Part shown: positions 5,945 through 21,654 of the stretch, piece after piece
Layout: each line of letters begins with the position of its first letter
Position numbering within the stretch: the first letter of the stretch is position 1
From: Clostridia bacterium
GTDB lineage: Bacteria; Bacillota; Clostridia; Oscillospirales; CAG-272
DNA length: 38,045 nucleotides
Reading direction: 5' to 3'
NCBI GenBank assembly: GCA_017399145.1
Contig: JAFQEG010000038.1
Span: forward strand, 1 to 38,045
The notes under the pieces: generated by a model
The model's input: only the letters and a program-made list of their open reading frames with translations
The model's database searches: none
Told to the model about the DNA's origin: nothing
Translations under genes and position numbers: made by a program

Positions 5945-7120
5945 TTAGAAATTATAGGGTATTCCCACATAGTGTAGCTCTGCATCATAGCGTTCAATTT
6001 GCTCGTTAGTTACCTTATCCAAATTGTTCAGTGATGCAATGGCACTGCCTCCCTTTTTCTTAAACAAGGCAGATATAATTCTTACCACCCACATAAGGGG
6101 TAAAAGAATAGCCCAGCCCTTTAAAAATGGGTATTTTCCACACATTTGCTGATATGGTGGAAAAATCATTTGTAATTTTCTTTTTCTCTTGCCTGCTTTT
6201 GCGTTTTTGTTGGCTTGCGCTAGTCTTAGTGCCTCTGCCTCTAGCTTTGCCTTTTTTTCACCATAGGTGCTTGATGCAAAGATTTTTCCCGTGATAAAGT
6301 CGGTTATTTCGTCACCCTCCTTATCGAAAAACCACACGTCAAGGACCCTTTTAGTGTTTTTGTAAAACTCTAGCATACCTATTTTATTTAGCTCGTTTTC
6401 TATGTATTGGTAGTCTAGGCTATTATTTTTTTCGTAAACGTAAAAGTCAGTTAAAAACTTAATACCGATACCGCCATCTCTGTAATGCTTTGCAAAATGA
6501 GTAAATAGGTAAATATAGGTATCGTTTTCCGTCATTTTGTATTCAAAGCGATTTTTGTCTACTCGTGTTAGCCTGTCCCAAGGGTCATCTCCAAAATAGC
6601 TAAACAAATCCTTAGTGTATGAGGGAATTAGCCTTTTGTGCAATTCAAAAACAATCTTGCCCTTTTCCCAAATAATCTCGTGATTACTCTCGGTCTTGTA
6701 GGTATAGCCAAGGTCGGTTAAAATCGCCTTGATTTCCTCATACCTATCCATTTTAGCATACACGTCAATATCGCTCATCATACGCATTTCCGGATAACGG
6801 TATAGCTTTTTTAGGATTGTGCCCTTCATCTTTAGATAAGGGATTTCTGCCTTATCTAGCCTATCGAAGAAGTTCTCTGCCTCCTCAAGCTGAATAGCGC
6901 TATATTGAGTTAGGTTAGCAGTTGACATTAAGAATTTTGTCCCTGCCACACCTAGCTTATCGGTTTTTGCAAGTCCATAGTAAATAAGGGGCACAATTTG
7001 GTGCTTAACTGCAAGCACATACGCCTCCTTTGGGTCAAATTCCTTTGATAAGTCGGGGACTGTGTCTAATAAAGACGCTTTTACGATAGATATAATGTCC
7101 CCCTCAAGGGTAGTTATCAT
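5945..7120 (-). CDS. Uncharacterised nucleotidyltransferase family protein
   Basis: A 391-residue protein with LKMKG (96-100) followed by RMMSDIDVY (113-121), where D117 and D119 are the expected metal-binding pair. This matches the PF14907-type uncharacterised nucleotidyltransferases seen in capsule and peptide clusters. The remainder is helical and basic, with a hydrophobic stretch near residues 330-350 (GWAILLPLMWVVRIISALF) that may touch the membrane. Its ATG overlaps the capE stop by one base (TAATG), so the two are translationally coupled. It interrupts the usual capE-capF-capG order. The target of any nucleotidyl transfer is unknown; possibilities are a sugar phosphate, a lipid-linked intermediate or a regulatory protein. 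Confidence 0.75.
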   Translation of the reverse strand: MITTLEGDIISIVKASLLDTVPDLSKEFDPKEAYVLAVKHQIVPLIYYGLAKTDKLGVAGTKFLMSTANLTQYSAIQLEEAENFFDRLDKAEIPYLKMKGTILKKLYRYPEMRMMSDIDVYAKMDRYEEIKAILTDLGYTYKTESNHEIIWEKGKIVFELHKRLIPSYTKDLFSYFGDDPWDRLTRVDKNRFEYKMTENDTYIYLFTHFAKHYRDGGIGIKFLTDFYVYEKNNSLDYQYIENELNKIGMLEFYKNTKRVLDVWFFDKEGDEITDFITGKIFASSTYGEKKAKLEAEALRLAQANKNAKAGKRKRKLQMIFPPYQQMCGKYPFLKGWAILLPLMWVVRIISALFKKKGGSAIASLNNLDKVTNEQIERYDAELHYVGIPYNF

Positions 7121-8186: not shown

Positions 8187-9185
8187 TTAAATTAAAAATC
8201 TTGCTACTGTGTAGCCTACGTAAATTACAAGTAAGCTAATTCCCTGTATTCTTGATAGCCTTTGACGAAATAGCGTTGGTACTACCAAAATCACCATTGA
8301 CAAAAGGGCTACGGGAATATCTAAAATCATTGAAACGGGCATACCTAAAAGCAATTCCTCGCTTGGCAAGGCAAAGGGTGCAATTGTAATTGACACGCCA
8401 GATACCAAGACTAAATTGAATAGATTTGCGCCTATTATGTTACCAAGGGACATATTACTGTGACCCTTAATAAGGGCTGTTATTGCAGTTACTAGCTCTG
8501 GCAAGGACGTACCAAGCGCCACTATTGTAAGGGCAATTAGCGCCTCGCTCATACCAAAGAATTTTGCCATAATGGTTGCGTTGTCAACCATTAGCTTAGC
8601 GCCAACGGCAATAAGGGTAGCGCCAATTATAATAAACGCAATTTCCTTAATTAGCTGAGGTCCCTTCGTCTTAGGGGGCAATACCTCGCCGTATGCTTCT
8701 GTCTCGGCTAATTCCTCAGGAGTATCGTCTTTTCTTCTCATTAATAGAATAGTCGTTACCATATAGCCAATAAAGGTTATTAGCAATACAATTCCTACCC
8801 ATCTTGCAAAGTCCTTTAAGAAAATTGCAATGCATACGTAGAAGATTGCAGTTGCAAAGAAGAATATTGATGGGGCTAAAAGTGGCCTTCTGTCAGCCGA
8901 GGCTGGCTTAATTGCAACTGTTATTGCAGCAATCAAGGCAGTATTACAAATTATCGAGCCTATGGCATTACCATAAGCCATTGACCCAAAGCCCTGAACA
9001 GCCGAGGTGGCAGATACCATAACCTCAGGCAAGGTAGTGCCTATCGACACAACGGTAGCACCTATTAAAATCTGTGGAATTTTAAACCTTTTAGCAATTC
9101 CGGAAGCACCGTCAACAAACCAATCCCCACCCTTAATAAGACATATAAGTCCTACTATAAATAGGGGTATTACGTACCATTCCAT
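8187..9185 (-). CDS. Calcium/sodium (cation/proton) antiporter, CaCA family
   Basis: A 332-residue integral membrane protein with about ten helices in two homologous halves. Each half carries an alpha-repeat: GTTLPE (49-54) and GTSLPE (225-230). GNAIGS and GNIIGAN follow each one. A short acidic, charged loop (about 150-178) separates the halves. This is the layout of YrbG-type K+-independent Na+/Ca2+ exchangers, which export cations at the cytoplasmic membrane. It lies inside the capsule operon between a glycosyltransferase and capE, an unusual place for an ion exchanger. A possible internal promoter lies just upstream, and the start is supported by GAAAGGAAG before ATG. Confidence 0.9.
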   Translation of the reverse strand: MEWYVIPLFIVGLICLIKGGDWFVDGASGIAKRFKIPQILIGATVVSIGTTLPEVMVSATSAVQGFGSMAYGNAIGSIICNTALIAAITVAIKPASADRRPLLAPSIFFFATAIFYVCIAIFLKDFARWVGIVLLITFIGYMVTTILLMRRKDDTPEELAETEAYGEVLPPKTKGPQLIKEIAFIIIGATLIAVGAKLMVDNATIMAKFFGMSEALIALTIVALGTSLPELVTAITALIKGHSNMSLGNIIGANLFNLVLVSGVSITIAPFALPSEELLLGMPVSMILDIPVALLSMVILVVPTLFRQRLSRIQGISLLVIYVGYTVARFLI

Positions 9186-9266: not shown

Positions 9267-10397
9267 AATGAGCTTTTTTAGGTCCTCTACAAGACCTCTG
9301 TGTAGCTTGTCTATCAAGCCTCGTGAGTCGTACTCGCTCTCTAGGTTAATTGACCTAATTGCTTTTGCAATTTCCTCAGGTGTATCATGCTCGTAAAAGG
9401 TAATGCTATCTCGAAGTGGCGACTCAACCACAGGCAAAACCTTACCACTTACAACCCTTAATCCATTTGATAAATACACAAGTATTTTTGATGGAAACGA
9501 GGTTTTGCTAAAGGGGTCGTTTACGTTTTGAGTAGCTATTCCTATATGGGCGCATTGAAGAATCCTTTTGTAAACCTCACCGCTGTATCGCCCATCAAGG
9601 GTAACCTTACAGCCCGACTTGCCCGATGCCTCAATTGCCTTCATAGTCAGGTAGGCAGTGACCTTTTCGTCACCCGAGCCTAAAATATGTAGGTGATAGC
9701 CCTCGTCAAGATAGGAGGCAGACTCAATTGCATTGATTGCCCCACCCTTTTTAGGGTTAAAGGTACCTGCATATACTAGGTGTATTCTGTTTGTAGCAGA
9801 TGTTTCTAGCACCTCTTCACTGTGATAGGTGCCCATGCAAATTGCATAATGCTTACCCTCGTTTAATTCCTTTTCCAAAACAGACGAGGAAAAGATATAG
9901 GAGTCAGCCTCTTTAATAAAGCTAACCTCTTTTTTGCGTACCCTTTTGTTTTCAGTTACGTCTGCGTAAATCTCGCAAACCTGTAAAATTAGCTTGAATT
10001 TCTTTTTCTTGCGTAGCTTTCTTAGTACGTCAATAAAGGCAAGACTGTGGTAAACAATTACCGTGTCGCCCTCATCAATTAGGCTATCAAGCTCGGAATA
10101 AAGCAATTTTTCTCGCTTTACCTTAGCAATTAGCCTAGCAAAGGGATTTTTGCCCTTATAGGACCCCTTGCACGCAAGATAAGTAAGGGTTGTCCTTTCG
10201 TTAATTTTGGACACTTCCCTCGGTGTTTTCTCGCCACCCCTTCGAGGCGAGGCAGACAAAACACTAATCTCTCCACAAGACTCGTTTAGTGCCTCAATTA
10301 GGTAATTCATCATAGTAACTGCAGTTATAAAGGCAGGTCGTTGTGGGCTATTTGAGTAGTGTCCTAGGTATATTATTTTTGATTTATCTGTTACCAT
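9261..10397 (-). CDS. Glycosyltransferase, GT4-like (GT-B fold)
   Basis: About 378 residues. The C-terminal half has GT-B features: VYAGTFNPKKGG near the domain start, a LDG..SGEVYK segment, then SKTSFPSKILVYLSNGL in the donor-binding position. The last part resembles the Glu-containing GT4 motif but is degenerate. The N-terminal acceptor domain starts with IIYLGHYSNSPQRPAF. I chose the ATG at 10397, which overlaps the rmlB end by 14 bases, over an upstream GTG at 10427 that would overlap more and has no ribosome site at proper distance. Specificity is unknown; being next to rmlB and rmlA it might use the dTDP sugar, but that is only a guess from position. Confidence 0.75.
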   Translation of the reverse strand: MVTDKSKIIYLGHYSNSPQRPAFITAVTMMNYLIEALNESCGEISVLSASPRRGGEKTPREVSKINERTTLTYLACKGSYKGKNPFARLIAKVKREKLLYSELDSLIDEGDTVIVYHSLAFIDVLRKLRKKKKFKLILQVCEIYADVTENKRVRKKEVSFIKEADSYIFSSSVLEKELNEGKHYAICMGTYHSEEVLETSATNRIHLVYAGTFNPKKGGAINAIESASYLDEGYHLHILGSGDEKVTAYLTMKAIEASGKSGCKVTLDGRYSGEVYKRILQCAHIGIATQNVNDPFSKTSFPSKILVYLSNGLRVVSGKVLPVVESPLRDSITFYEHDTPEEIAKAIRSINLESEYDSRGLIDKLHRGLVEDLKKLIL

Positions 10398-11403
10398 ACA
10401 TTTTTTCGTAATAATTCTTGTATTCACCAGAGATAATAGTTTCCCACCATTCTCTGTTGTTAAGATACCAGTCTATTGTCTTATCAATACCCTCGGCAAA
10501 TTTTGTTTCAGGTAGCCAGCCTAGCTCTGTATGTATCTTTGTAGGGTCGATTGCGTAGCGCATATCGTGACCCTTTCTGTCCGCAACATATGTGATTAAG
10601 CTTTCAGGTTTGCCAAGCTTTTTACAAATTAGCTTAACTATGTCGATATTTGCCATTTCGTTATGTCCGCCAACGTTGTAAACCTCGCCAACTCTACCCT
10701 TGTGAATAATTAGGTCGATTGCCTTGCAGTGGTCCTCAACGTATAGCCAATCACGAATATTCTCACCCTTTCCATATACAGGCAAGGGCTTGTCGTTTAA
10801 TGCATTAGCTATCATTAAAGGAATTAGCTTCTCTGGAAAATGGTAAGGACCATAGTTATTTGAGCAACGAGAAATTGTTACAGGTAAGCCAAAGGTCCTA
10901 TGATAAGCCAACACCAAAAGGTCGGCGCTTGCCTTTGATGCACTATATGGACTGCTTGTATGAATTGGTGTATCCTCGGTAAAGAAAAGGTCGGGACGGT
11001 CAAGAGGCAAATCGCCATAAACCTCGTCGGTGGAAACCTGATGATAACGTGTAATTCCATACTTGCGACATGCGTCCATCAATACCTGTGTTCCTAAAAT
11101 GTTAGTTTGCAAGAAAACCTCGGGATTTTCAATTGAACGGTCAACGTGACTTTCTGCTGCAAAGTTTACTATAATATCAGGCTTTTCGTTTTCGAAAATC
11201 TTGTAGATTTCTACCCTGTCGCAGATATTTGTTTTATAGAAGGTAAAGTTAGGATTTTTCATAGCCTCGGCAAGTGTTGACATATTGCCTGCATAGGTAA
11301 GACAGTCAACGCAGATAACCTTGTAATCCTTATATTTATTAAGCAGGTGATAAACGAAGTTAGAGCCTATAAAGCCTGCTCCACCAGTTACTAATATCTT
11401 CAT
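10384..11403 (-). CDS. rmlB: dTDP-glucose 4,6-dehydratase
   Basis: A 339-residue extended short-chain dehydrogenase with GGAGFIGSN (7-15) for NAD binding, STDEVYG (124-130) containing the catalytic Asp-Glu pair, and Y153xxxK157 (YSASK). These are the hallmarks of RmlB/RfbB, which converts dTDP-glucose to dTDP-4-keto-6-deoxyglucose. It directly follows rmlA with no gap. The product can feed RmlC or be aminated by the neighbouring DegT-type enzyme. Confidence 0.96.
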   Translation of the reverse strand: MKILVTGGAGFIGSNFVYHLLNKYKDYKVICVDCLTYAGNMSTLAEAMKNPNFTFYKTNICDRVEIYKIFENEKPDIIVNFAAESHVDRSIENPEVFLQTNILGTQVLMDACRKYGITRYHQVSTDEVYGDLPLDRPDLFFTEDTPIHTSSPYSASKASADLLVLAYHRTFGLPVTISRCSNNYGPYHFPEKLIPLMIANALNDKPLPVYGKGENIRDWLYVEDHCKAIDLIIHKGRVGEVYNVGGHNEMANIDIVKLICKKLGKPESLITYVADRKGHDMRYAIDPTKIHTELGWLPETKFAEGIDKTIDWYLNNREWWETIISGEYKNYYEKMYGNR

Positions 11404-12285: not shown

Positions 12286-13389
12286 TTAGCTTAAAATTAT
12301 GTCACAAATAAGGTCAACGTCCTCAATTGTCAAATCTGCATACATAGGAAGAGTTAAAACAGTTTCTGCTGCGTGCTTAGCAATAGGTGTGCTTGCAACA
12401 GAGAAGCCGTAGTCCTGTGCGTAGCATTCAAGCTCGTTTGTCAATGGATAGAAATACTTTCTTGCAAAAACTTGGCTTTCTGCAAGCTTTGCTTGTATTT
12501 CATTTCTGTTTAGCTTGTAGCCATCAAAGAATACAGGGAAGTAGGAGTAGTTTTGTCTTACACCCTCTTGTGGTGCAATAAGCTTAATTCCCTCAACTCC
12601 TGATAGCCTTTCAACGTATCTTTTAGCTGCCTCTTCTCTCTTTGCGATTTCATCATCAATATGACGAAGGTTGCAAAGACCCATAGCAGCCTCGTATTCG
12701 TTCATTCTTGCATTTGTGCTTACGTAAGCAACGGACTCATGACTTGTAAAGCCAAAGTTTGTGAGCTGATCAACCTTTGAATAAATTTCCTTATTCTTAA
12801 AGGTAGTAATTCCACCCTCAATTGTGTGGAAAACCTTGGTTGCGTGACAGCTGAACATTGCTGCATCACCAAAGGTACCAACTCCAACGCCGTCGATAGT
12901 TACACCAAAGGCATGGGCTGCATCGTAAATAACCTTCAAGCCGTGCTTATCTGCAATTTCTTGAATTTTCTTAACGTCACAAACGTAGCCGTAAACGTGA
13001 GTTGCAACGATTGCAACTGTTTTGTCTGTGATTAAATCCTCGATTTTATCTGCATCAATGGTGTAATCTCTGTCGTTTATGTCGCAGAATACGGGAATTA
13101 GTCCGTTCCTTGCAATTGCGTGAGTTGTTGAGCAATGGGTGTATGGAGTTGTAATAACCTCACTACCCTTCTTAAAGCCAAAGGCATCAATTGCCACCTC
13201 TAAGGCAACGTGTCCGTTTGCAAAGAGAGCTATGTTTTCAGCACCTAGATAGCCCTGTAGCTTTTCCTCAAATTCTCTGTGCTTTGCGCCTCTGTTTGAC
13301 AACCATCTGGAGTCCCAAAGGCTCTTAATTTCCTCGCAATATTCCTCATAAGACGGCATTGATGAGCGTGTTACGTTAATTTTTTTCAT
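12286..13389 (-). CDS. DegT/DnrJ/EryC1/StrS-type sugar aminotransferase (VioA-like)
   Basis: A 367-residue PLP enzyme. K185 (in SCHATK) is the expected Schiff-base lysine, D156 (YDAAHA) the pyridine-nitrogen partner, and NGHVALE (58-64) the phosphate-binding stretch. The N-terminus (INVTRSSMPSYEEY, then WLSNRG) resembles the VioA/dTDP-4-amino-4,6-dideoxyglucose type of transaminase. It sits between rmlC and rmlA, where rmlD would normally be found. The likely reaction is transfer of an amino group to C4 of a dTDP-4-keto-6-deoxy sugar. The start is set at 13389 by AAGGAGAAG four bases upstream; an upstream in-frame ATG would overlap the rmlC coding end. The exact sugar is not determinable from sequence. 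Confidence 0.85.
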   Translation of the reverse strand: MKKINVTRSSMPSYEEYCEEIKSLWDSRWLSNRGAKHREFEEKLQGYLGAENIALFANGHVALEVAIDAFGFKKGSEVITTPYTHCSTTHAIARNGLIPVFCDINDRDYTIDADKIEDLITDKTVAIVATHVYGYVCDVKKIQEIADKHGLKVIYDAAHAFGVTIDGVGVGTFGDAAMFSCHATKVFHTIEGGITTFKNKEIYSKVDQLTNFGFTSHESVAYVSTNARMNEYEAAMGLCNLRHIDDEIAKREEAAKRYVERLSGVEGIKLIAPQEGVRQNYSYFPVFFDGYKLNRNEIQAKLAESQVFARKYFYPLTNELECYAQDYGFSVASTPIAKHAAETVLTLPMYADLTIEDVDLICDIILS

Positions 13390-13400
13390 ATCTCTTCTCC

Positions 13401-13943
13401 TTAAAAGTTGCAATCAGATTTTTCTAGGCTTGGTGCGTTTTTGTCCTTTTCTGACAAGATAAGCTCATCAAAGCCCCAATTTATATTTATCATCTTATCG
13501 TAGGGGGTAATTGAACGGTCACAGCTTGGCTCGTACAGTGCGTCAACCAAGTACTCAATTTCCGAATTATCCTCTAAATTTATTACTGCATGAGCAAAGC
13601 CCTTTGGAATAAATAATTGCTTTTTGTTTTCCTCGGTTAGTTCATAGCAAACGTGCTTAAGATAGGTTGGTGAGTCCTTTCTTAAATCAATTGCATAGTC
13701 CATTACTCTACCCTTAGTGCAACGAACAAGCTTAGCCTGTGCGTGTGGGTAATTTTGGAAGTGTATACCTCTTACTGTACCCTTTTTCTTTGAAAAGGCA
13801 CAATTTTCCTGTACAGGCTTGAAATCTATCCCTGCATTCTCAAGTGCCCTTGTACTGAACACCTCGTTAAACGAGCCTCGCTCGTCGCTAAAAACTCTTG
13901 GCGTAATTAGCTTTACCTCTTTTATTTCTGTATCAATTATCAT
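13401..13943 (-). CDS. rmlC: dTDP-4-dehydrorhamnose 3,5-epimerase
   Basis: A 180-residue cupin with RGIHFQ (58-63, catalytic His61), AKLVR (70-74, Lys71), PKGFAHAV (113-120) and the DALYEPSCDRSI segment that supplies the active-site Tyr. Length and motifs fit RmlC rather than the shorter 3,4-ketoisomerases (FdtA/QdtA). It would epimerise C3 and C5 of dTDP-4-keto-6-deoxyglucose. A 70-base gap containing a weak dyad separates it from the transporter gene upstream. No rmlD is found in the window, so L-rhamnose synthesis is incomplete here. Confidence 0.92.
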   Translation of the reverse strand: MIIDTEIKEVKLITPRVFSDERGSFNEVFSTRALENAGIDFKPVQENCAFSKKKGTVRGIHFQNYPHAQAKLVRCTKGRVMDYAIDLRKDSPTYLKHVCYELTEENKKQLFIPKGFAHAVINLEDNSEIEYLVDALYEPSCDRSITPYDKMININWGFDELILSEKDKNAPSLEKSDCNF

Positions 13944-14013: not shown

Positions 14014-15294
14014 CTAAAATGGAAACACCAATGGCACGAATACTAAAATACTTGTTAGAACAATTAATACTAATGGCCACGTATATCTAATGTAGTCGGA
14101 AAACTTGTAGCCGGCTACAAGAGTCATTGCTGTTTGTGCGTTTGCTAGTGGTGTACTATATGTCAAGTTTGCCGCGTAAACTATTCCTAATGTAAATGGA
14201 ATTGGGCTGTATCCGTTAGCGATACAAAGCGATAAAGCAATCGGTAGCATTATAACGACAGCAGTAGAGTTTGTAATAAAGTTACTTACAACCATTGTTA
14301 CAACAACAAATATTGCGAATATTATAAAGACAGGAACTCCATTTCCTAAAACTGAGGACAAGGCGTTTCCTATCAAATCGCCTGCGCCACCCTTGGTTAT
14401 GCCTGATGCAATACCTAAACAACCAGCTAGAACAAATACAACAGACCAGTCCATTTTTTTGATAATAGTCTTTTGCTTAACACAACCGGTAATTATGCAA
14501 AGTAAGGCAGCAATAACGGCGGTTAATGCAGTAGAAATCCAAGCACCGATAAACGACACTATTGTGGCAACAAAAATGATAGCCATAATTATTGCCTTTT
14601 TCTTGTCTAGCTCCACCTTTTCGGTTTCGGGGGCGTCAATTGCTTCCGCCTCGGCACCCTCTGTTACTTCTCTATTCCCCCAAATTCTCTTTGCCAATTT
14701 AGGTCCTAGAAGCACAGCATATAATAGATATCCAGCAGTAAGTATTGCGCCGACTAGAGTATAGTCAAACATTCCGATTTCCACACCAGTCATTTCGGAA
14801 AGTATTCCGTTAGCGGTCAATTGTGGTGTCGAGCCTACCAAGGTGCAAGCTCCACCAAACATAGCGCCTAGTGTTACTGGCAAGGTTAAATTCAATCTGT
14901 TCATTTTTTTGTCTGCACGGGCAACACTCTCTATTATAGGAAGAAATATTGCTATAACGGCAGTATTTGATAAGAAGGTGGAAAGCACAGCAGAGGTCAA
15001 TCCAGCCACTAGAATAAATATTCTTTCTTTTCTTCTTGACAAGGAAGTAACCTTCTGACCTATAAACTTAGCAATTCCAGTTTCCTGCATAGCCAAGCCT
15101 ACAACCATCATACCAAACATTAATATTACAACAGAGTTTGAAAATCCTGAAAAAGCATCCTTAAGGTCGCAAACGCCTGTCAAAACAAATAAAAGGCATC
15201 CTAGCACAGCGGTTGCTGCGTTTGGTATTATTCTTGTAACGAATAACACTATGCACAGCACTAAAATAATCAAGCTAATAATTTCTGGTGTCAT
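14014..15294 (-). CDS. SLC13/DASS-type anion (carboxylate) transporter
   Basis: A 426-residue membrane protein with roughly 11-12 helices and the inverted-repeat pattern of the DASS family. SNTAVIAIFLP (109-119) in the first half and SNFITNSTAVVIMLP in the second carry the Ser-Asn-Thr substrate-binding motifs. GSTPQLTANGIL follows the first. A charged cytoplasmic loop (about 200-232) divides the halves. Family members move dicarboxylates, citrate or sulfate, commonly with sodium. The ATG overlaps the preceding ATP-grasp stop (ATGA), with GGAG just upstream, so synthesis is coupled to that enzyme. A nutrient transporter inside a capsule operon is unusual and suggests that its substrate is used in the polymer. 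Substrate unknown. Confidence 0.88.
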   Translation of the reverse strand: MTPEIISLIILVLCIVLFVTRIIPNAATAVLGCLLFVLTGVCDLKDAFSGFSNSVVILMFGMMVVGLAMQETGIAKFIGQKVTSLSRRKERIFILVAGLTSAVLSTFLSNTAVIAIFLPIIESVARADKKMNRLNLTLPVTLGAMFGGACTLVGSTPQLTANGILSEMTGVEIGMFDYTLVGAILTAGYLLYAVLLGPKLAKRIWGNREVTEGAEAEAIDAPETEKVELDKKKAIIMAIIFVATIVSFIGAWISTALTAVIAALLCIITGCVKQKTIIKKMDWSVVFVLAGCLGIASGITKGGAGDLIGNALSSVLGNGVPVFIIFAIFVVVTMVVSNFITNSTAVVIMLPIALSLCIANGYSPIPFTLGIVYAANLTYSTPLANAQTAMTLVAGYKFSDYIRYTWPLVLIVLTSILVFVPLVFPF

Positions 15295-16583
15295 CTGTGC
15301 TCCTCCATCAATTCCTTGGTATCTACATTTGAAAACACCATGTTTTCTCCGTTTTCATTTTTAATTATTAGCGTATCATATATCCAATCAATGGTTTTAC
15401 AAAGTTCATGAATATCCTCACAAACGAGATCTATTTCACAGAAGCGTTGATTAACATTATAATGCTCACCGACGACATCGCCAACCTTGTATTTTTCACA
15501 CATTGATACAACACAGTGGTGGCTTTTCACCTGCTCTGCACCAATTATTTCTGTGATTTTTCCAGGTCTTACGGATATTAACAAATAAGGTGTCAGCTTT
15601 CCTCTTTGCATATATCCATTTTCCAAGCTATGCATTTTGGTTTTTACTTTTCCCAACAATGCAAATTCAATTAAGGGTCTTATTAGGCTTTCGTTATGTA
15701 CTCTTTCGTACATTCTTTCATATTCTGCCCCAGGATATCTCAAGCCTGGATCATAAAAACGAACCGTGTCACCATCAACAAATCCCTGCATAAAGGCAGG
15801 CGCATTTTCAAGTCCGATGCTTTTTAGCATTTGCCTTACTTTTTTATCCGAGCCCTTTAAATACATTTCTATATATTTCGATGGAGCCATTCCCATCATA
15901 GAAACTCTCTCCATTTTATCCTCTATACGTCCTAGCCTTCTGTCTCCTACTCTGGTTAGATACACCTCTTTGTCTATGACAATATATGAAACACAAATAT
16001 CTTTCTTGTTTCCCATATATTTTTCGATTATGGCCTTGCTATTGGCACTTTCCTTTTTTGCTGTCTCAATAGCTTTTATAACGTCATTCTTATTGTAGCA
16101 CACAGCAGAACCTCTGCTACCTCTGCTTATACAAGGCTTTACTAAAAGAGGATATTCCACATCCTTGTCATTATCATTTAAGAAGTACGCCTCGTCATAC
16201 TCAGGAATTACATCAACCCCATGCTCTATACAGCATTTCTTGAACAATGTCTTATCTGTCAAAATTTCAAACTGTTGCTTGGTGCCAAAGCAAGGAAGCC
16301 CTAGTCTTTCACAAATCTGTTGATAAGGCTTTTGACATGCATCAAGGCAAACAGATATTACCCCGTCGATTTTCTCTTTTTTGCAAAAATCTACTATTTC
16401 ATCAATATCAGTGATATTAAACATCAGTTGATAATCTGCCATTTGCTTAGCTGGAGATTTTTCTGTTGGTAAATAGTCTGTTACATAAGTGATTACTCCA
16501 AGCTTTCTTGCCGTTTCAACAACCTTACAGTGCTGAAATGCACCGCCTATTACTAATAGCCTTTTTCCCTTTAAATCCTTCAT
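15291..16583 (-). CDS. ATP-grasp ligase-like enzyme
   Basis: A 430-residue protein of ATP-grasp build. It has a pre-ATP-grasp Rossmann domain (KRLLVIGGAFQHCKVVETA, 7-25), an ATP-binding stretch YPLLVKPCISRGSRGS, then the metal/phosphate region YDPGLRYPG. There Asp and Gly replace the Glu and Asn of the common ExNxR pattern, a variant I believe occurs in capsule-cluster ATP-grasp proteins. A C-terminal domain of about 110 residues resembles that of L-amino-acid ligases. Such enzymes join a carboxylate to an amine through an acyl phosphate. It overlaps both neighbours by four bases (ATGA). Substrates unknown; involvement in amide decoration of a sugar is inferred from context. Confidence 0.8.
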   Translation of the reverse strand: MKDLKGKRLLVIGGAFQHCKVVETARKLGVITYVTDYLPTEKSPAKQMADYQLMFNITDIDEIVDFCKKEKIDGVISVCLDACQKPYQQICERLGLPCFGTKQQFEILTDKTLFKKCCIEHGVDVIPEYDEAYFLNDNDKDVEYPLLVKPCISRGSRGSAVCYNKNDVIKAIETAKKESANSKAIIEKYMGNKKDICVSYIVIDKEVYLTRVGDRRLGRIEDKMERVSMMGMAPSKYIEMYLKGSDKKVRQMLKSIGLENAPAFMQGFVDGDTVRFYDPGLRYPGAEYERMYERVHNESLIRPLIEFALLGKVKTKMHSLENGYMQRGKLTPYLLISVRPGKITEIIGAEQVKSHHCVVSMCEKYKVGDVVGEHYNVNQRFCEIDLVCEDIHELCKTIDWIYDTLIIKNENGENMVFSNVDTKELMEEHR

Positions 16584-17596
16584 AAATTCCTCTTTACTAC
16601 TGTTATTGATAGCTCCTTGTAAGCCCTTATGCCTACACTAGCCTCAAGAATTTTCTTATCTACCTCTTGTCCCTTATGCCAAAGCACAAGTGCCCTTGGC
16701 AAATCACAGCCACCTATATGGCTAAAGGGATAGCCCCCGCCAAATCGAGCATTCATTTCTAGAATATATGGCACTCCGTCAACCAAAAATACGTCAACGT
16801 CCATATTGCCAATATGCCCCACTAGCTTTCCAAGTCGGTTGCATTCCTTATAAATGCTTGGCTCGTCCACAAGCTCTGCAATATCCGTTTCACCAGCACG
16901 CATAGCTATTTTTTTCTTAACTATTGTATTTTGATAATTGCCCTCTAGGTCGTTTATTATGTCTGCACCGTATTCCTGACCCTTAAGACATTCTTGATAT
17001 ATAATCTTGTCCTCAACTAACGAGGATTCATATTTCAAATAGCTTCTATTAATCGCTCTTGTATTTCTTCTGAAATAATACAGAAGTGCCATTTCGTCCT
17101 CGGCAATTGACATAGCAATTGAGCCACAGCCAAAGCGAGGCTTTACAATTACAGGATAGCTTATTTCACCTCTGTCAAGTGCGTTTATAGTATCCTCTAG
17201 TGTAAGATAGGTTTTTGGTACGTTAAATCCATTTTCCTTCAGGAATTGATAGGTTTTCCATTTGTCGTTACAAATATCAATTACTTCCTTACTTGATACA
17301 ACTACTCTTGTGCCAATCTCTGCAAATTTGTCTATATTTTTAGAAAGCACACCTAAGTCAATGTCGAAAAGTGAAAGTAGCATATCTATTTTATTTTCCT
17401 TGCAATAGTCAAGCAAAAAAGGTATGTAATTTTCGTCGTAAATAAGAGGGGCTATAACCGATTTATCTGCATAATGAAATGCGACGGTTTTGTCGTCGGA
17501 GTTGCATACGTGCACAAGTCCGTCATTACCTATTGCTTCCTTAAAGTATTTTACCATGTAAGCACGTCTGCCTACTGAGGTTAAAAGAACGTTCAT
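16580..17596 (-). CDS. ATP-grasp enzyme, carbamoyl-phosphate-synthase-like (PylC-like)
   Basis: A 338-residue protein starting MNVLLTSVGRRAYMV. A Rossmann-like pre-domain (1 to about 100) is followed by the ATP-grasp domain, with YPVIVKPRFGCGS as the lysine-containing nucleotide loop and LEMNARFGGGYPFSH with the canonical Glu, Asn and Arg metal and phosphate ligands. The start at 17596 has AAGGAAAATTAAA upstream; a further upstream ATG would lie inside the GNAT gene. It overlaps the next ATP-grasp gene by four bases. Two dissimilar ATP-grasp enzymes in a row suggest two successive ligations, or one complex. Proteins of this type occur in capsule loci of other bacteria with unassigned function. 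Confidence 0.82.
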   Translation of the reverse strand: MNVLLTSVGRRAYMVKYFKEAIGNDGLVHVCNSDDKTVAFHYADKSVIAPLIYDENYIPFLLDYCKENKIDMLLSLFDIDLGVLSKNIDKFAEIGTRVVVSSKEVIDICNDKWKTYQFLKENGFNVPKTYLTLEDTINALDRGEISYPVIVKPRFGCGSIAMSIAEDEMALLYYFRRNTRAINRSYLKYESSLVEDKIIYQECLKGQEYGADIINDLEGNYQNTIVKKKIAMRAGETDIAELVDEPSIYKECNRLGKLVGHIGNMDVDVFLVDGVPYILEMNARFGGGYPFSHIGGCDLPRALVLWHKGQEVDKKILEASVGIRAYKELSITVVKRNL

Positions 17597-17597
17597 T

Positions 17598-18032
17598 TTA
17601 ATTTTCCTTAATATAATATATAAGATGTAAATCCATTGGTCGTGGCTCATTTTTCATTTTGTATTCAACAAAGCCAAGTCCTTTATAAAGCATAACGGCA
17701 GGAAGGTTTTCCTTAACTGCATACAGATGTACAGAGTCGATTTTCTTTTCTCTGCACAAGCTAATAAACTCCTCAATCAGACTCTTGCCATAGCCACAGC
17801 CCCTTGCTTTTTCAAGTGTTGCAAGAATTGAAACGTAAGCCGAATTATTCTCTATATTTCCCGTATAGCCTGCCACAAGGGACAAAATCTCTCCATTTTC
17901 CTCTCTTGTAAGAATTGTTGCCTTTTCTAAAAGCTTGTCTGCAAATTTATCCAAATCCTGTTTTTTAGAAAGTGGCACGGGAAAATCCTTGTCAACCTGC
18001 TTCAAAAATCGTAAAAGCACTTGCTTCGTCAT
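17598..18032 (-). CDS. GNAT-family N-acetyltransferase
   Basis: A 144-residue single-domain protein. The acetyl-CoA pyrophosphate loop is visible as ARGCGYGKSL (R/Q-x-x-G-x-G/A pattern), preceded by the strand AYVSILATL and followed by the LHLYAVKENLPAVMLYKGLGF segment typical of GNAT motifs A and B. Its ATG overlaps the flippase stop (ATGA). Within this operon a plausible task is acylation of a 4-amino sugar nucleotide made by the DegT enzyme, as VioB-type enzymes do, although VioB itself belongs to another fold. Protein or amino-acid acetylation is also possible. Confidence 0.82.
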   Translation of the reverse strand: MTKQVLLRFLKQVDKDFPVPLSKKQDLDKFADKLLEKATILTREENGEILSLVAGYTGNIENNSAYVSILATLEKARGCGYGKSLIEEFISLCREKKIDSVHLYAVKENLPAVMLYKGLGFVEYKMKNEPRPMDLHLIYYIKEN

Positions 18033-19480
18033 TTCTGTTTCCTTTTCAATTTACTAAACAAAATATTTTTTACAAACACAAAGCCCTTTAGCTTAAGCAT
18101 AGCTGAGCCTAATACGTACATGGCTACGCCTGCGACTATTTGAATTACCAATGTTAAAACTGGATGTAGTATCAACGCATTGCCTATAAAGTAAACCACA
18201 GCAAACATAATCGCCGATAAGACAAATGATGGAAGTATATCCCTCATCTGCTCAAAATAGGAATAACCGATAAGCCTTTTGTTTGGAAATGCATTTACAA
18301 AGCAACTAATAAGTGTTGTAACAAGACCCGTTGCGGCAATTGCTATTGGGGAATCAAAGCAGAATACCGCTATAACAAGGGCGCCTACTCCTATAGCCTT
18401 TTTAACCATTTCTACCTTCAGGTAAATATCGCTTCTGCCCACTGCGTTTATAGCCTGTAGGTTACAACTATGGACAGGCATAAATGCAAGTGAAAAGCAA
18501 TAAATCATCATAAATGGAACAGCTGGCAACCACTTTTCGGTCAAAATAACAGTAATAAGTGGTGTTGCAACCGCTGCAAGTCCCGCCATCATTGGAAAAA
18601 TAACATAGGAGCTTACAACAATAGATGTACGCATTGTAGCCTTAAGCCTTTTCTTGTCGTCCTGCTCCTTTGAAAGCGCAGGTAGCATAACTGCCTGTAC
18701 AGAGCCATTTATTGCATTTATTACAAACTGTGGAAATTGCTTACCTCTGTTGTAATAGCCAAGAGTACCGCTATCGTATTTTTTTCCAACAACAAGACTT
18801 CTTAGGTCTTGATAAAGTGTGTCTATTAAATTGGATACAAGAAGCTTCCAGCCAAAGGAAAGAAGTCTTCCTACCCTTCTAAAATTGCAAGTAATTTTGG
18901 GAACCCACTTTACAGTAAATCCCATAACAATAGTTGTCACTACCACGTTCAAAAGCGTTTGAAGCACAAGCGCCCACACACCACCGCCATTTAATGCAAC
19001 TATGATACCCACAGCACCAGAAATAATTATTCCACTAAGATTTCCTACGAAAACCTTTTTGAAATTCATTTCTCTTCTTACCTTAGCAAGCTGAATTGAG
19101 TTTACAACTCCTGGAAAAAGCATAAGCCCCAACACTCTAAATGGAGTTATAATTGTAGGCATTTCGTAAAAGTCAGCTAACCACGGTGCTAAAAAGTACA
19201 TCACTAAATATAAAACAAAGGTCGTCGTCATAGAAAACCAAAAAACTGATGAAAAGTCATCGTCGTCAATCTTCTTTTTTTGAACAAGCGCCGTATTAAA
19301 TCCGCCTTGTACAAACACCGTTGCCAGCGTTGTAAAAATTATCATTATGGAAAGAACTCCATAATCGTCAGGAGACAATATTCTTGCAAGAATTATTTGC
19401 AAGACAAATTGTACACCTTGAACTCCAAAGCGCTCAAGTAGTTTCCAACCAAGTGCCTTGGATACTGTATTGTTGCTCAT
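18029..19480 (-). CDS. Polysaccharide flippase, Wzx/PST type (MOP superfamily)
   Basis: A 483-residue protein with about 12-14 hydrophobic helices. It begins GWKLLERFGVQGVQFVLQII and continues ARILSPDDYGVLSIM, the standard opening of the WzxC/PST-type exporters. It would flip undecaprenyl-linked repeat units across the cytoplasmic membrane. The basic C-terminus (KLKRKQK) is expected to be cytoplasmic. It follows a GT2 gene by nine bases and overlaps the GNAT gene by four. The conventional name would be wzx. Confidence 0.92.
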   Translation of the reverse strand: MSNNTVSKALGWKLLERFGVQGVQFVLQIILARILSPDDYGVLSIMIIFTTLATVFVQGGFNTALVQKKKIDDDDFSSVFWFSMTTTFVLYLVMYFLAPWLADFYEMPTIITPFRVLGLMLFPGVVNSIQLAKVRREMNFKKVFVGNLSGIIISGAVGIIVALNGGGVWALVLQTLLNVVVTTIVMGFTVKWVPKITCNFRRVGRLLSFGWKLLVSNLIDTLYQDLRSLVVGKKYDSGTLGYYNRGKQFPQFVINAINGSVQAVMLPALSKEQDDKKRLKATMRTSIVVSSYVIFPMMAGLAAVATPLITVILTEKWLPAVPFMMIYCFSLAFMPVHSCNLQAINAVGRSDIYLKVEMVKKAIGVGALVIAVFCFDSPIAIAATGLVTTLISCFVNAFPNKRLIGYSYFEQMRDILPSFVLSAIMFAVVYFIGNALILHPVLTLVIQIVAGVAMYVLGSAMLKLKGFVFVKNILFSKLKRKQK

Positions 19481-20469: not shown

Positions 20470-21654
20470 CTAATCCCTACAATATAAATCTCTTGTGTAA
20501 ATCTTGTCCTTTACGTCAGCTAAATCCTTGCTACTTCTATTAGCAACGATTACATCACAGATGCTCTTAAACTCATCAAGATTTTTGATAACCTTACTGT
20601 TAAAGAAGGAATCCTCCTTCATAGTTGGCTCGTAAATAACAACCTCAACGCCCTCTGCCTTAATTCTTTTCATAACACCTTGAATCGAGGATTGACGGAA
20701 GTTGTCGCTATTAGCCTTCATTGTAAGCCTATAAACGCCTACAATTTTTGGCTTCTTTGACAAAATCTGTTCAGCTACAAAGTCCTTACGTGTTTTGTTT
20801 GATTCTACAATTGCGCTAATCAAATTTTGTGGAACATTTTCATAATTCGCTCTTAATTGCTTAGTGTCCTTAGGTAAGCAATAGCCACCATATCCAAAGG
20901 ATGGATTGTTATAATGGTCCCCTATTCGTGGGTCTAAGCAAACACCATCAATAATTGACCTTGTGTCAAGTCCTTTAGTTGCTGCATAGGTGTCGAGCTC
21001 GTTAAAATAAGCAACTCTTAGTGCAAGATATGTATTTGCAAAAAGCTTTATTGCCTCCGCCTCGGTAAGGTCGGGGAAAAGCGTTACAATATTTTCCTTT
21101 ATTGCTCCCTCACAAAGCAAATTGGCAAATTCTCTTGCCTTTTCTTGTAATCGAGCATCATTTTTTGGTGCTCCAACAACAATTCTGCTAGGATACAAAT
21201 TATCGTAAAGTGCATGTCCCTCTCTTAAAAACTCAGGGCTGAAAATAATATTATCGCAACCGAATTTCTCTCTTACACTTACTGTATATCCAACAGGAAT
21301 TGTAGATTTTATAACCATAATTGCGTTTTTGTTAACTGAAATTACCTTTTCAATAACGTTCTCAACCGCTGAGGTGTCGAAGTAATTCTTGTCAGGGTCA
21401 TAGTTGGTAGGGGCAGCAATTACAACAAAATCTGCGTCCTTATATGCCTCTTCGCCATTTAGGGTTGCTCTTAAATCAAGCTCTTTATTAAGCAAATAAT
21501 CCTCGATTTCCTTGTCCATAATTGGTGATTTTTTGTTATTTATCATTTCCACCTTTTCAGGTATAATATCAACAGCTGTTACCTGATGATTTTGAGATAA
21601 AAGCACCGCTATCGATAATCCTACATAACCTGTACCCGCTACTGCAATTTTCAT
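20470..21654 (-). CDS. ugd: UDP-glucose 6-dehydrogenase
   Basis: A 394-residue NAD-dependent dehydrogenase of the short Ugd class. GTGYVGLS (7-14) is the NAD-binding loop, FSPEFLREG (138-146) the substrate-loop segment, K203 a conserved catalytic lysine, and [11 protein letters not shown] (254-264) contains the catalytic C259. It oxidises UDP-glucose twice to UDP-glucuronate, giving the polymer a probable acidic sugar. A 26-base gap follows to the GT2 gene, and an 10-base gap separates it from the upstream GT4 gene. Other nucleotide-sugar dehydrogenases (UDP-ManNAc type) differ in this signature, so UDP-glucose is the likeliest substrate. Confidence 0.92.

What the first reader, a model, noticed from the sequence alone, without database searches (positions are those of the whole stretch)
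14014..18032. Coupled SLC13 transporter, two ATP-grasp ligases and GNAT inside a capsule operon: a possible import-and-ligate decoration module
Seen: four genes in the order GNAT, ATP-grasp, ATP-grasp, SLC13 are packed together (a 1-base gap, then 4-base ATGA overlaps), and the GNAT gene also overlaps the flippase by ATGA. Known: ATP-grasp ligases join carboxylates to amines, SLC13 proteins import di- or tricarboxylates, and the next genes downstream make a dTDP sugar with a VioA-like aminotransferase. Inference: the module supplies a carboxylate and attaches it by an amide bond to an amino sugar before export. I know of no described capsule system with this exact set.
Basis: partly seen in the sequence, partly recalled or inferred. 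Interest (0 to 1): 0.72.

Follow-up and report, generated by a model that had tools for sequence, protein, structure and literature searches.

The report
Capsule-sugar decoration module with carboxylate importer
A gut Clostridia surface-polysaccharide operon carries enzymes that probably attach an amino acid or other acid to an amino sugar, next to a membrane carrier that probably supplies the acid; in relatives the carrier and its partner enzyme were swapped together, which suggests a way to vary surface chemistry.

Summary
Confirmed: GNAT, ATP-grasp A, ATP-grasp B and an SLC13/CitMHS-type transporter are tightly packed between the flippase and the dTDP-sugar genes. The exact uninterrupted set was seen only here, but its logic recurs. 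Of 61 loci scored for ATP-grasp A, 16 have another ATP-grasp beside it; 14 of these carry an acid or amino-acid transporter within three genes (SLC13, DctM-like or APC), against 0 of the other 45, though with few independent origins. In the nearest locus found, L039, the genes on both sides are 93-99% identical, but ATP-grasp B is 53% and SLC13 is replaced by a DctM-like permease; both match a third locus at 89-91%, so ligase and transporter were exchanged together. From the aminotransferase side, 12 of 15 DegT loci have ATP-grasps nearby. The GNAT is kin to that of E. coli O121, whose polymer bears N-acetylglycyl-Qui4N. Best reading: an imported acid is ligated to an aminoacylated 4-amino sugar, and GNAT caps it. 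No enzyme, transport or polymer was tested, and no ATP-grasp of this kind was matched to a known polymer. The chemotype is known; the exchangeable ligase-plus-importer pair is the new part.

The parts
14014..15294 (-). SLC13/DASS-CitMHS-type transporter, proposed acid importer
   Evidence: PF03600 214 bits, PF00939 100.7; profile match to VcINDY 4f35 over nearly the whole length, E 7.5e-34; the one PF00939 protein found in its own genome, 76% complete
15291..16583 (-). ATP-grasp ligase B, proposed ligase for the imported acid
   Evidence: PF02786, PF21360 over cut-off; profile best matches 4dim and L-amino acid ligase 3vot; lies in a clade of 10 that all have SLC13 or DctM-like nearby
16580..17596 (-). 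ATP-grasp ligase A (PRK12767 type), core ligase
   Evidence: NF009404 341 bits over 316; 2pn1 E 1.2e-48; 79-84% identical in two relatives
17598..18032 (-). GNAT acyltransferase, proposed cap on the aminoacyl alpha-amine
   Evidence: PF00583; best solved match N-alpha-acetyltransferase 30; same subfamily as the E. coli O121 GNAT
18029..19480 (-). Wzx-type flippase
   Evidence: PF13440 322.7 bits; relatives are fused to GNAT in four loci and to an ATP-grasp in one
13401..13943 (-). RmlC, dTDP-4-dehydrorhamnose 3,5-epimerase
   Evidence: TIGR01221 188 bits over 155.75
12286..13413 (-). DegT (VioA/DesI-like) sugar aminotransferase, proposed maker of the acceptor amine
   Evidence: PF01041 309.8 bits; best NCBIfam TIGR04427 DesI 269.8, below its cut-off; phmmer match to E. 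coli VioA 304 bits
11404..12276 (-). RmlA, glucose-1-phosphate thymidylyltransferase
   Evidence: TIGR01207 471 bits over 360.65
10384..11403 (-). RmlB-type dTDP-glucose 4,6-dehydratase
   Evidence: PF16363 302.5 bits; placed as RmlB by context and by kinship to the E. coli-type genes seen in relatives

Best explanation
A surface-polysaccharide decoration module. RmlA, RmlB, (RmlC) and DegT make a dTDP-4-amino-4,6-dideoxyhexose. ATP-grasp A joins an amino acid to the 4-amino group. ATP-grasp B activates a second acid, taken up by the neighbouring SLC13-type transporter, and joins it to the same substituent, forming a dipeptide-like acyl group or a direct amide. GNAT acylates a remaining alpha-amine. 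The unit is then exported by Wzx. Shown by sequence comparison: gene identities, the recurring association of ATP-grasp A with DegT and Wzx, co-occurrence and joint exchange of ATP-grasp B with its transporter. Inferred: substrates, order of steps, direction of transport, and whether the acceptor is the nucleotide sugar or the lipid-linked unit.
For: 1) DegT in 46 of 61 ATP-grasp A loci (37 of 43 with 19 kb or more), UGDH in 4 of 61. 2) From the other side, 12 of 15 family DegT loci have ATP-grasps within about 5 genes, 1 has WbqC, 2 neither. 3) Transporter with a second ligase: 14 of 16 loci against 0 of 45; a Pfam scan of 31 multi-TM proteins (300-560 residues) near ATP-grasp A in the 45 found no such transporter. 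4) Joint exchange: window vs L039 RmlC 97, DegT 98.7, RmlA 96.6, RmlB 97.6, GNAT 93, A 94.6% but B 52.7% and SLC13 replaced by DctM-like; L039 vs L040 B 89, DctM 91, small protein 87.5% but DegT 63, GNAT 59, A 83%. 5) Different transporter families in that slot. 6) Search from the transporter: the best match outside the own genome, G061 (44%), lies between an ATP-grasp and DegT-RmlA-RmlB; the next, G531 (41%), lies among polysaccharide genes. 7) GNAT model scores the O121 GNAT 79 bits; best solved match is an N-alpha-acetyltransferase. 8) Acid- or amino-acid-handling enzymes in other loci: octopine-type dehydrogenase with an amino-acid permease, MmgE/PrpD nearest to IDS-epimerase and cis-aconitate decarboxylase, ornithine-cyclodeaminase type.
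Against: No activity, transport or structure data. The co-occurrence has few independent origins: 3 contrasts on supported branches, median sign-test p 0.25. The exact four-gene set recurs only with insertions. GNAT of this subfamily was found in 29 of 61 loci (23 as a separate gene, 6 fused), RmlA in 22 and RmlB in 19 of 61 by the thresholds used, so the core is looser than DegT plus ATP-grasp A. L039 differs from the window in more than the ligase-transporter block: no match to its Wzx, and glycosyltransferases and polymerase at 58-94%. Of ten SLC13 loci fetched from the genome searches, eight show no module gene. The window has no supply enzyme of the octopine or MmgE type, and its genome no MmgE/PrpD match (76% complete). 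ATP-grasp B is below the LAL_C2 cut-off and DegT passes no NCBIfam equivalog cut-off. In E. coli O121 and O123, with published substituents, WbqC and not ATP-grasp stands in the matching place, so the ligase role is by analogy. L046 and L049 have a second ATP-grasp without a same-strand transporter.
Confidence: 0.57

Rival explanations
1. The transporter is a nutritional carboxylate carrier that travels with the locus and has nothing to do with the polymer; the ligases use only cytoplasmic amino acids.
For: Eight of the ten SLC13 loci fetched from the genome searches show no module gene, and one was checked to lie near HGD-D dehydratase genes (L148); in L046 the SLC13 is on the opposite strand with a LysR gene and MmgE/PrpD; the window operon also holds a Na+/Ca2+ antiporter; the E. 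coli O121 and O123 clusters show no annotated importer.
Against: 14 of 16 against 0 of 45 loci, different transporter families in the same slot, joint exchange with ATP-grasp B, and the two nearest SLC13 relatives of the genome searches lie in polysaccharide loci.
Confidence: 0.18
2. The ATP-grasps amidate the carboxyl group of glucuronic acid (UGDH is in the operon) with amino acids, instead of acylating the amino sugar.
For: UGDH at 20470-21654; uronic-acid amides with amino acids are listed polymer groups (PMC10609480, passages).
Against: UGDH in 4 of 61 ATP-grasp A loci and 5 of 27 ATP-grasp B loci; DegT in 46 of 61 and 15 of 27; 12 of 15 DegT loci carry ATP-grasps.
Confidence: 0.1
3. The ligases make a free small molecule (dipeptide or opine-like acid), and the transporter exports or exchanges it, with the polysaccharide genes as neighbours only.
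For: ATP-grasp B resembles L-amino acid ligases (3vot second in the profile search); linked ATP-grasp and GNAT genes are described for peptide-like metabolites (passages of PMC4431377).
Against: Flippase-GNAT fusion in 4 loci and flippase-ATP-grasp fusion in 1 tie the enzymes to polysaccharide export; recurring DegT and Wzx context.
Confidence: 0.1

Closest known systems
E. coli O121 / Shigella dysenteriae 7 N-acetylglycyl-Qui4N pathway
   Same: rfbB, rfbA, DegT aminotransferase and a GNAT of the same subfamily in one cluster. Qui4N with N-acetylglycyl is listed for S. dysenteriae D7 (PMC10609480 table) and cited to a study of E. coli O121 in PMC3210612 (passages)
   Different: O121 has WbqC where the window has ATP-grasps, and no annotated importer
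E. coli O123 3-hydroxybutyryl-D-alanyl-Qui4N pathway
   Same: DegT next to acylation genes; its 324-aa protein is kin to the PLP-like protein of L024 and L036 (218 bits); substituent listed in PMC10609480
   Different: WbqC, a GNAT not found by the GNAT model, and MaoC; no ATP-grasp, no importer
E. coli plasmid pLAU-OXA3 cluster and Providencia heimbachae cluster (DegT, GNAT, ATP-grasp A)
   Same: DegT, GNAT and ATP-grasp A next to Wzx, RmlA and RmlB-type genes
   Different: One ATP-grasp only and no transporter of these families beside it; the plasmid adds a PALP enzyme
Linked ATP-grasp and GNAT amidoligase operons (Aravind group)
   Same: Two ligases and a GNAT in one operon, read as successive ligation and capping; O-antigen and teichuronopeptides named (passages of PMC4431377)
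   Different: Those passages name no importer and no DegT link; the main source, Iyer et al. 2009, was not held and its content is recalled only
DASS/SLC13 carboxylate transporters (VcINDY)
   Same: Nearly full-length profile match to VcINDY
   Different: Below the TIGR00785 cut-off; the second SNT-like motif reads NST (motif recalled)

Membership tests
ATP-grasp superfamily (both ligases) | Curated Pfam ATP-grasp models over cut-off | tested here: met
   A: PF02655 70.8 over 23.2; B: PF02786 36.3 over 19.8
PRK12767 family (ATP-grasp A) | NF009404 over cut-off | tested here: met
   341 over 316
L-amino acid ligases (ATP-grasp B) | LAL_C2 domain over cut-off | tested here: not met
   PF18603 21.5 under 29.4, so it is not filed as one; the ATP-grasp of L145 passes (37.7)
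DASS/SLC13 transporters | CitMHS or Na_sulph_symp Pfam models over cut-off | tested here: met
   PF03600 214.1, PF00939 100.7
DASS/SLC13 transporters | NCBIfam TIGR00785 over cut-off | tested here: not met
   159.2 under 198.6; hence called SLC13/CitMHS-type, not filed as a DASS member
DASS/SLC13 transporters | Two SNT motifs (recalled) | tested here: inconclusive
   SNT at residues 109-111, second site reads NST; the first is SNI in L044 and L046
VioA/DesI 4-aminotransferases | NCBIfam equivalog cut-off | tested here: not met
   TIGR04427 269.8 under 650; kept as VioA-like only
N-acyl-aminoacyl-Qui4N pathway (O121 type) | DegT plus GNAT of the O121 subfamily | tested here: met
   GNAT model 79 bits to O121, no hit to O123; DegT match 283.6 bits
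N-acyl-aminoacyl-Qui4N pathway (O121 type) | WbqC protein | tested here: not met
   No WbqC among the 30 window proteins scanned, the 26 operon genes included
N-acyl-aminoacyl-Qui4N pathway (O121 type) | Polymer bearing the aminoacyl group | not testable with these tools
   No polymer data for this organism

The most novel reading that the evidence does not exclude
An exchangeable import-and-ligate cassette: gut Clostridia swap a transporter together with its matching ATP-grasp, so that the acid displayed on their surface polysaccharide is drawn from the host, diet or neighbours (for example aconitate, itaconate or imino-dicarboxylate types, as the MmgE/PrpD and octopine-dehydrogenase neighbours hint), and surface chemistry varies without new sugar genes.
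Probability: 0.22. Interest if true: 0.8.

Novelty: new variant of a known kind. Interest (0 to 1): 0.6.

Why it matters
Amino-acid and acid substituents occur on many bacterial surface sugars (PMC10609480, passages), but, as far as recalled, few of the enzymes that make these amides are assigned. This locus family offers candidate ligases, a candidate cap enzyme and candidate importers, with a natural exchange (L039 against the window) that says which pieces belong together. If the importer feeds the ligase, a surface polymer would depend on an outside metabolite, which can be tested in commensal gut bacteria.

Tried and rejected
Exact four-gene conservation as a test: failed in the strict sense (uninterrupted set only in the window among the 61 scored loci). 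First genome-contig scan with ATP-grasp B alone: no relative; the second, with an ATP-grasp A alignment, gave 72 loci. Structure models: switched off, so no pocket comparison. Uronic-acid amidation: disfavoured by the UGDH counts. E. coli clusters were looked at to find an ATP-grasp with a known polymer: O121 and O123 carry WbqC instead, so no direct match of this ATP-grasp to a structure was found. Ten paper searches, in an open-licence library only and seen as listings, showed no described operon of this kind; passages were read in six papers.

Rows dropped or not examined. Of the 72 loci, 60 were scored, with the window 61. L045, L053 and L096 are relatives whose ATP-grasp A frame the script's ORF picker missed; L102 scored 137 bits, below the 150 used; L103-L110 are weak matches. 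The transporter models were built from the loci themselves; the negative side was checked with Pfam on 31 proteins, of which at most 18 matched any family, and six longer multi-TM proteins (593-748 residues) near ATP-grasp A were not scanned. In the ATP-grasp B set, a multi-TM protein two genes from ligase B in L037 was not scanned with Pfam. The ATP-grasp B tree labels L032 'none'; later showed an amino-acid permease two genes away.
Full report
Observation. Family matches: GNAT, PRK12767-type ATP-grasp (A), a second ATP-grasp (B), and an SLC13/CitMHS-type transporter. Around them lies an operon-like run of 26 genes: PglE-, PglC- and PglD-type genes, glycosyltransferases, an EpsG-type protein, UGDH, a Wzx-type flippase, then rmlC, degT, rmlA, rmlB, a glycosyltransferase-like gene, a Na+/Ca2+ antiporter and CapE/CapF/epimerase-type genes. 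Whether it makes a capsule or another surface polymer cannot be told.

Where it occurs. In 295 genomes of the family (own included), ATP-grasp B has relatives in 17 (E up to 1e-30), ATP-grasp A in 4 (1e-80), the transporter in 3 (1e-20) and DegT in 15 (1e-90). A scan of genome contigs with an ATP-grasp A alignment gave 72 loci, mostly Clostridia, with others from Bacteroidota, Fibrobacterota, Spirochaetota, Mycoplasmatota and Pseudomonadota. Sixty of these plus the window were scored.

The core. ATP-grasp A stands with DegT in 46 of 61 loci, with a Wzx-type flippase in 42, with GNAT of this subfamily in 29 (23 separate, 6 fused), with RmlA in 22, RmlB in 19 and UGDH in 4; these counts depend on the bit thresholds and on contig ends. 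DegT, GNAT and ATP-grasp A next to Wzx, RmlA and RmlB-type genes are seen as far away as Providencia heimbachae, Salinimicrobium (RmlB weak, 128 bits) and an E. coli plasmid, where a PALP-type enzyme sits between GNAT and ATP-grasp. From the DegT side, 12 of 15 family loci have one or more ATP-grasps within about 5 genes, one has WbqC, two have neither. At genome level ATP-grasp B and DegT share 8 of 295 genomes against 0.86 expected, in two of them (G032, G273) at different places.

The variable part. Sixteen of the 61 loci have a further ATP-grasp beside A. Fourteen of them carry, within three genes on the same strand, SLC13 (3), a DctM-like permease (8) or an amino-acid permease (3); a fifteenth, L046, has SLC13 on the other strand; L049 has none. 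None of the other 45 has one. The Fisher value of 5e-12 overstates the case, because only 3 independent contrasts lie on supported branches; over 200 pairings they agree in 2.8 on average and never go the other way. Pfam on 31 multi-TM proteins of those 45 loci found acyltransferases, polymerase-type proteins and the like, one MFS and one AI-2E protein, and no carboxylate or amino-acid transporter; at least 13 matched no family. In a tree of 27 ATP-grasp B proteins, the clade of 10 that holds the window (support 100/100) has SLC13 (4, one on the other strand) or DctM-like (6) nearby in every member. Over the 27 loci, at least 16 have a transporter within three genes, counting L029 (DctM), L032 (amino-acid permease), L036 (GltS-like) and L046.

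Joint exchange. L039 (roe deer colon MAG) is close to the window: RmlC 97%, DegT 98.7%, RmlA 96.6%, RmlB 97.6%, CapE 96.6%, antiporter 92%, GNAT 93%, ATP-grasp A 94.6%. Its ATP-grasp B is only 52.7% and its transporter is DctM-like. Those genes match L040 at 89% (B), 91% (DctM-like) and 87.5% (small membrane protein), while DegT, GNAT and A of L039 and L040 are 63%, 59% and 83% alike; RmlA, RmlB and CapE are 90-93% alike. Other parts of L039 differ from the window too: no match to its Wzx, and glycosyltransferases and the EpsG-type protein at 58-94%. But the ligase-transporter block is bracketed on both sides by nearly identical genes. The DNA match breaks off between window positions about 13,960 and 16,198, apart from one 102-base patch; the upper edge lies inside the conserved N-terminal part of ligase B and should not be read as an exact crossover.

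Search from the transporter. Ten loci of SLC13 relatives were fetched. The nearest, G061 (44%), has Wzx, an ATP-grasp, an MmgE/PrpD enzyme, SLC13, DegT, RmlA and RmlB in a row; the next, G531 (41%), lies among polysaccharide genes with an ATPgrasp_ST protein and UGDH; the other eight show no module gene. In the contig scan, L050 (72%), L044 (36%) and L046 (38%) are beside ATP-grasps.

What the parts hint at. The GNAT profile's best solved match is N-alpha-acetyltransferase 30, and a GNAT model built from 17 locus sequences without E. coli scores the E. coli O121 GNAT at 79 bits and does not find the O123 GNAT. PMC10609480 lists Qui4N with N-acetylglycyl (S. dysenteriae D7), N-acetyl-aspartyl, N-acetyl-allothreonyl and N-(1-carboxyethyl)alanyl groups (passages); PMC3210612 cites N-acetylglycyl on Qui4N to a study of E. 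coli O121 (passages). The O7-type cluster has VioA with VioB and neither GNAT nor WbqC. Loci with the amino-acid permease also carry an octopine-type dehydrogenase (Pfam on L073; L074 and L094 by model), which fits an imino acid such as carboxyethyl-alanine. Two SLC13 loci, L145 and L046, have an MmgE/PrpD enzyme nearby; the one in L145 is closest to IDS-epimerase and cis-aconitate decarboxylase. Four loci fuse GNAT to the flippase and one fuses an ATP-grasp to it, so acylation may take place at the membrane.

Reading. Best supported is a decoration module in which A and GNAT build an acylated aminoacyl group on the 4-amino sugar, and B adds an acid supplied by its own importer. Shown: gene identity, association, co-occurrence and joint exchange. 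Inferred: substrates, order, direction of transport and product. RmlC beside DegT suggests an L-configured sugar; no clear RmlD was seen in the 76%-complete genome, but one further PF04321 hit (54 bits, in a 650-residue frame) was not resolved, so this is weak.

Novelty. The substituent type is known, and ATP-grasp plus GNAT operons have been discussed (passages of PMC4431377). A transporter-plus-ligase pair exchanged as a unit inside polysaccharide loci was not seen in the ten paper searches named in Tried and rejected. It is filed as a new variant of a known kind.

Noticed in passing
window 8187-9185: A calcium/sodium antiporter gene (TIGR00367 200 bits over 179.65) lies inside the polysaccharide operon; also in L039 (92% identical); 2 of 61 loci in all.
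   Followed up: partly
L040 8083-9999, L044 8069-9997, L048 8064-10004, L049 8077-9999: Wzx-type flippase fused at its C-terminus to a GNAT domain in four different loci.
   Followed up: partly
L024 5602-8331: Wzx-type flippase fused to an ATP-grasp domain (909 residues).
   Followed up: partly
L026, L028, L031, L034, L037, L038: One or two ATP-grasps follow DegT/PglE-type aminotransferase and PglC-type genes, close to where the window has its PglD-type gene, perhaps acylating a bacillosamine-type sugar.
   Followed up: no
L145 4052-5428: MmgE/PrpD enzyme closest to IDS-epimerase and cis-aconitate decarboxylase between an ATP-grasp and SLC13 in a polysaccharide operon.
   Followed up: partly
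L116 13800-14774 and L024 8341-9294: An uncharacterised PLP-like protein without Pfam match is shared by the E. coli O123-type cluster and Clostridia loci.
   Followed up: partly
window 5945-7120: Uncharacterised nucleotidyltransferase (PF14907) between CapE- and CapF-type genes, also in L022 and L024.
   Followed up: no
L115: E. coli plasmid pLAU-OXA3 carries a DegT-GNAT-PALP-ATP-grasp polysaccharide gene set beside several insertion sequences; 4 of 5426 E. coli genomes match its ATP-grasp region, all on plasmids.
   Followed up: no
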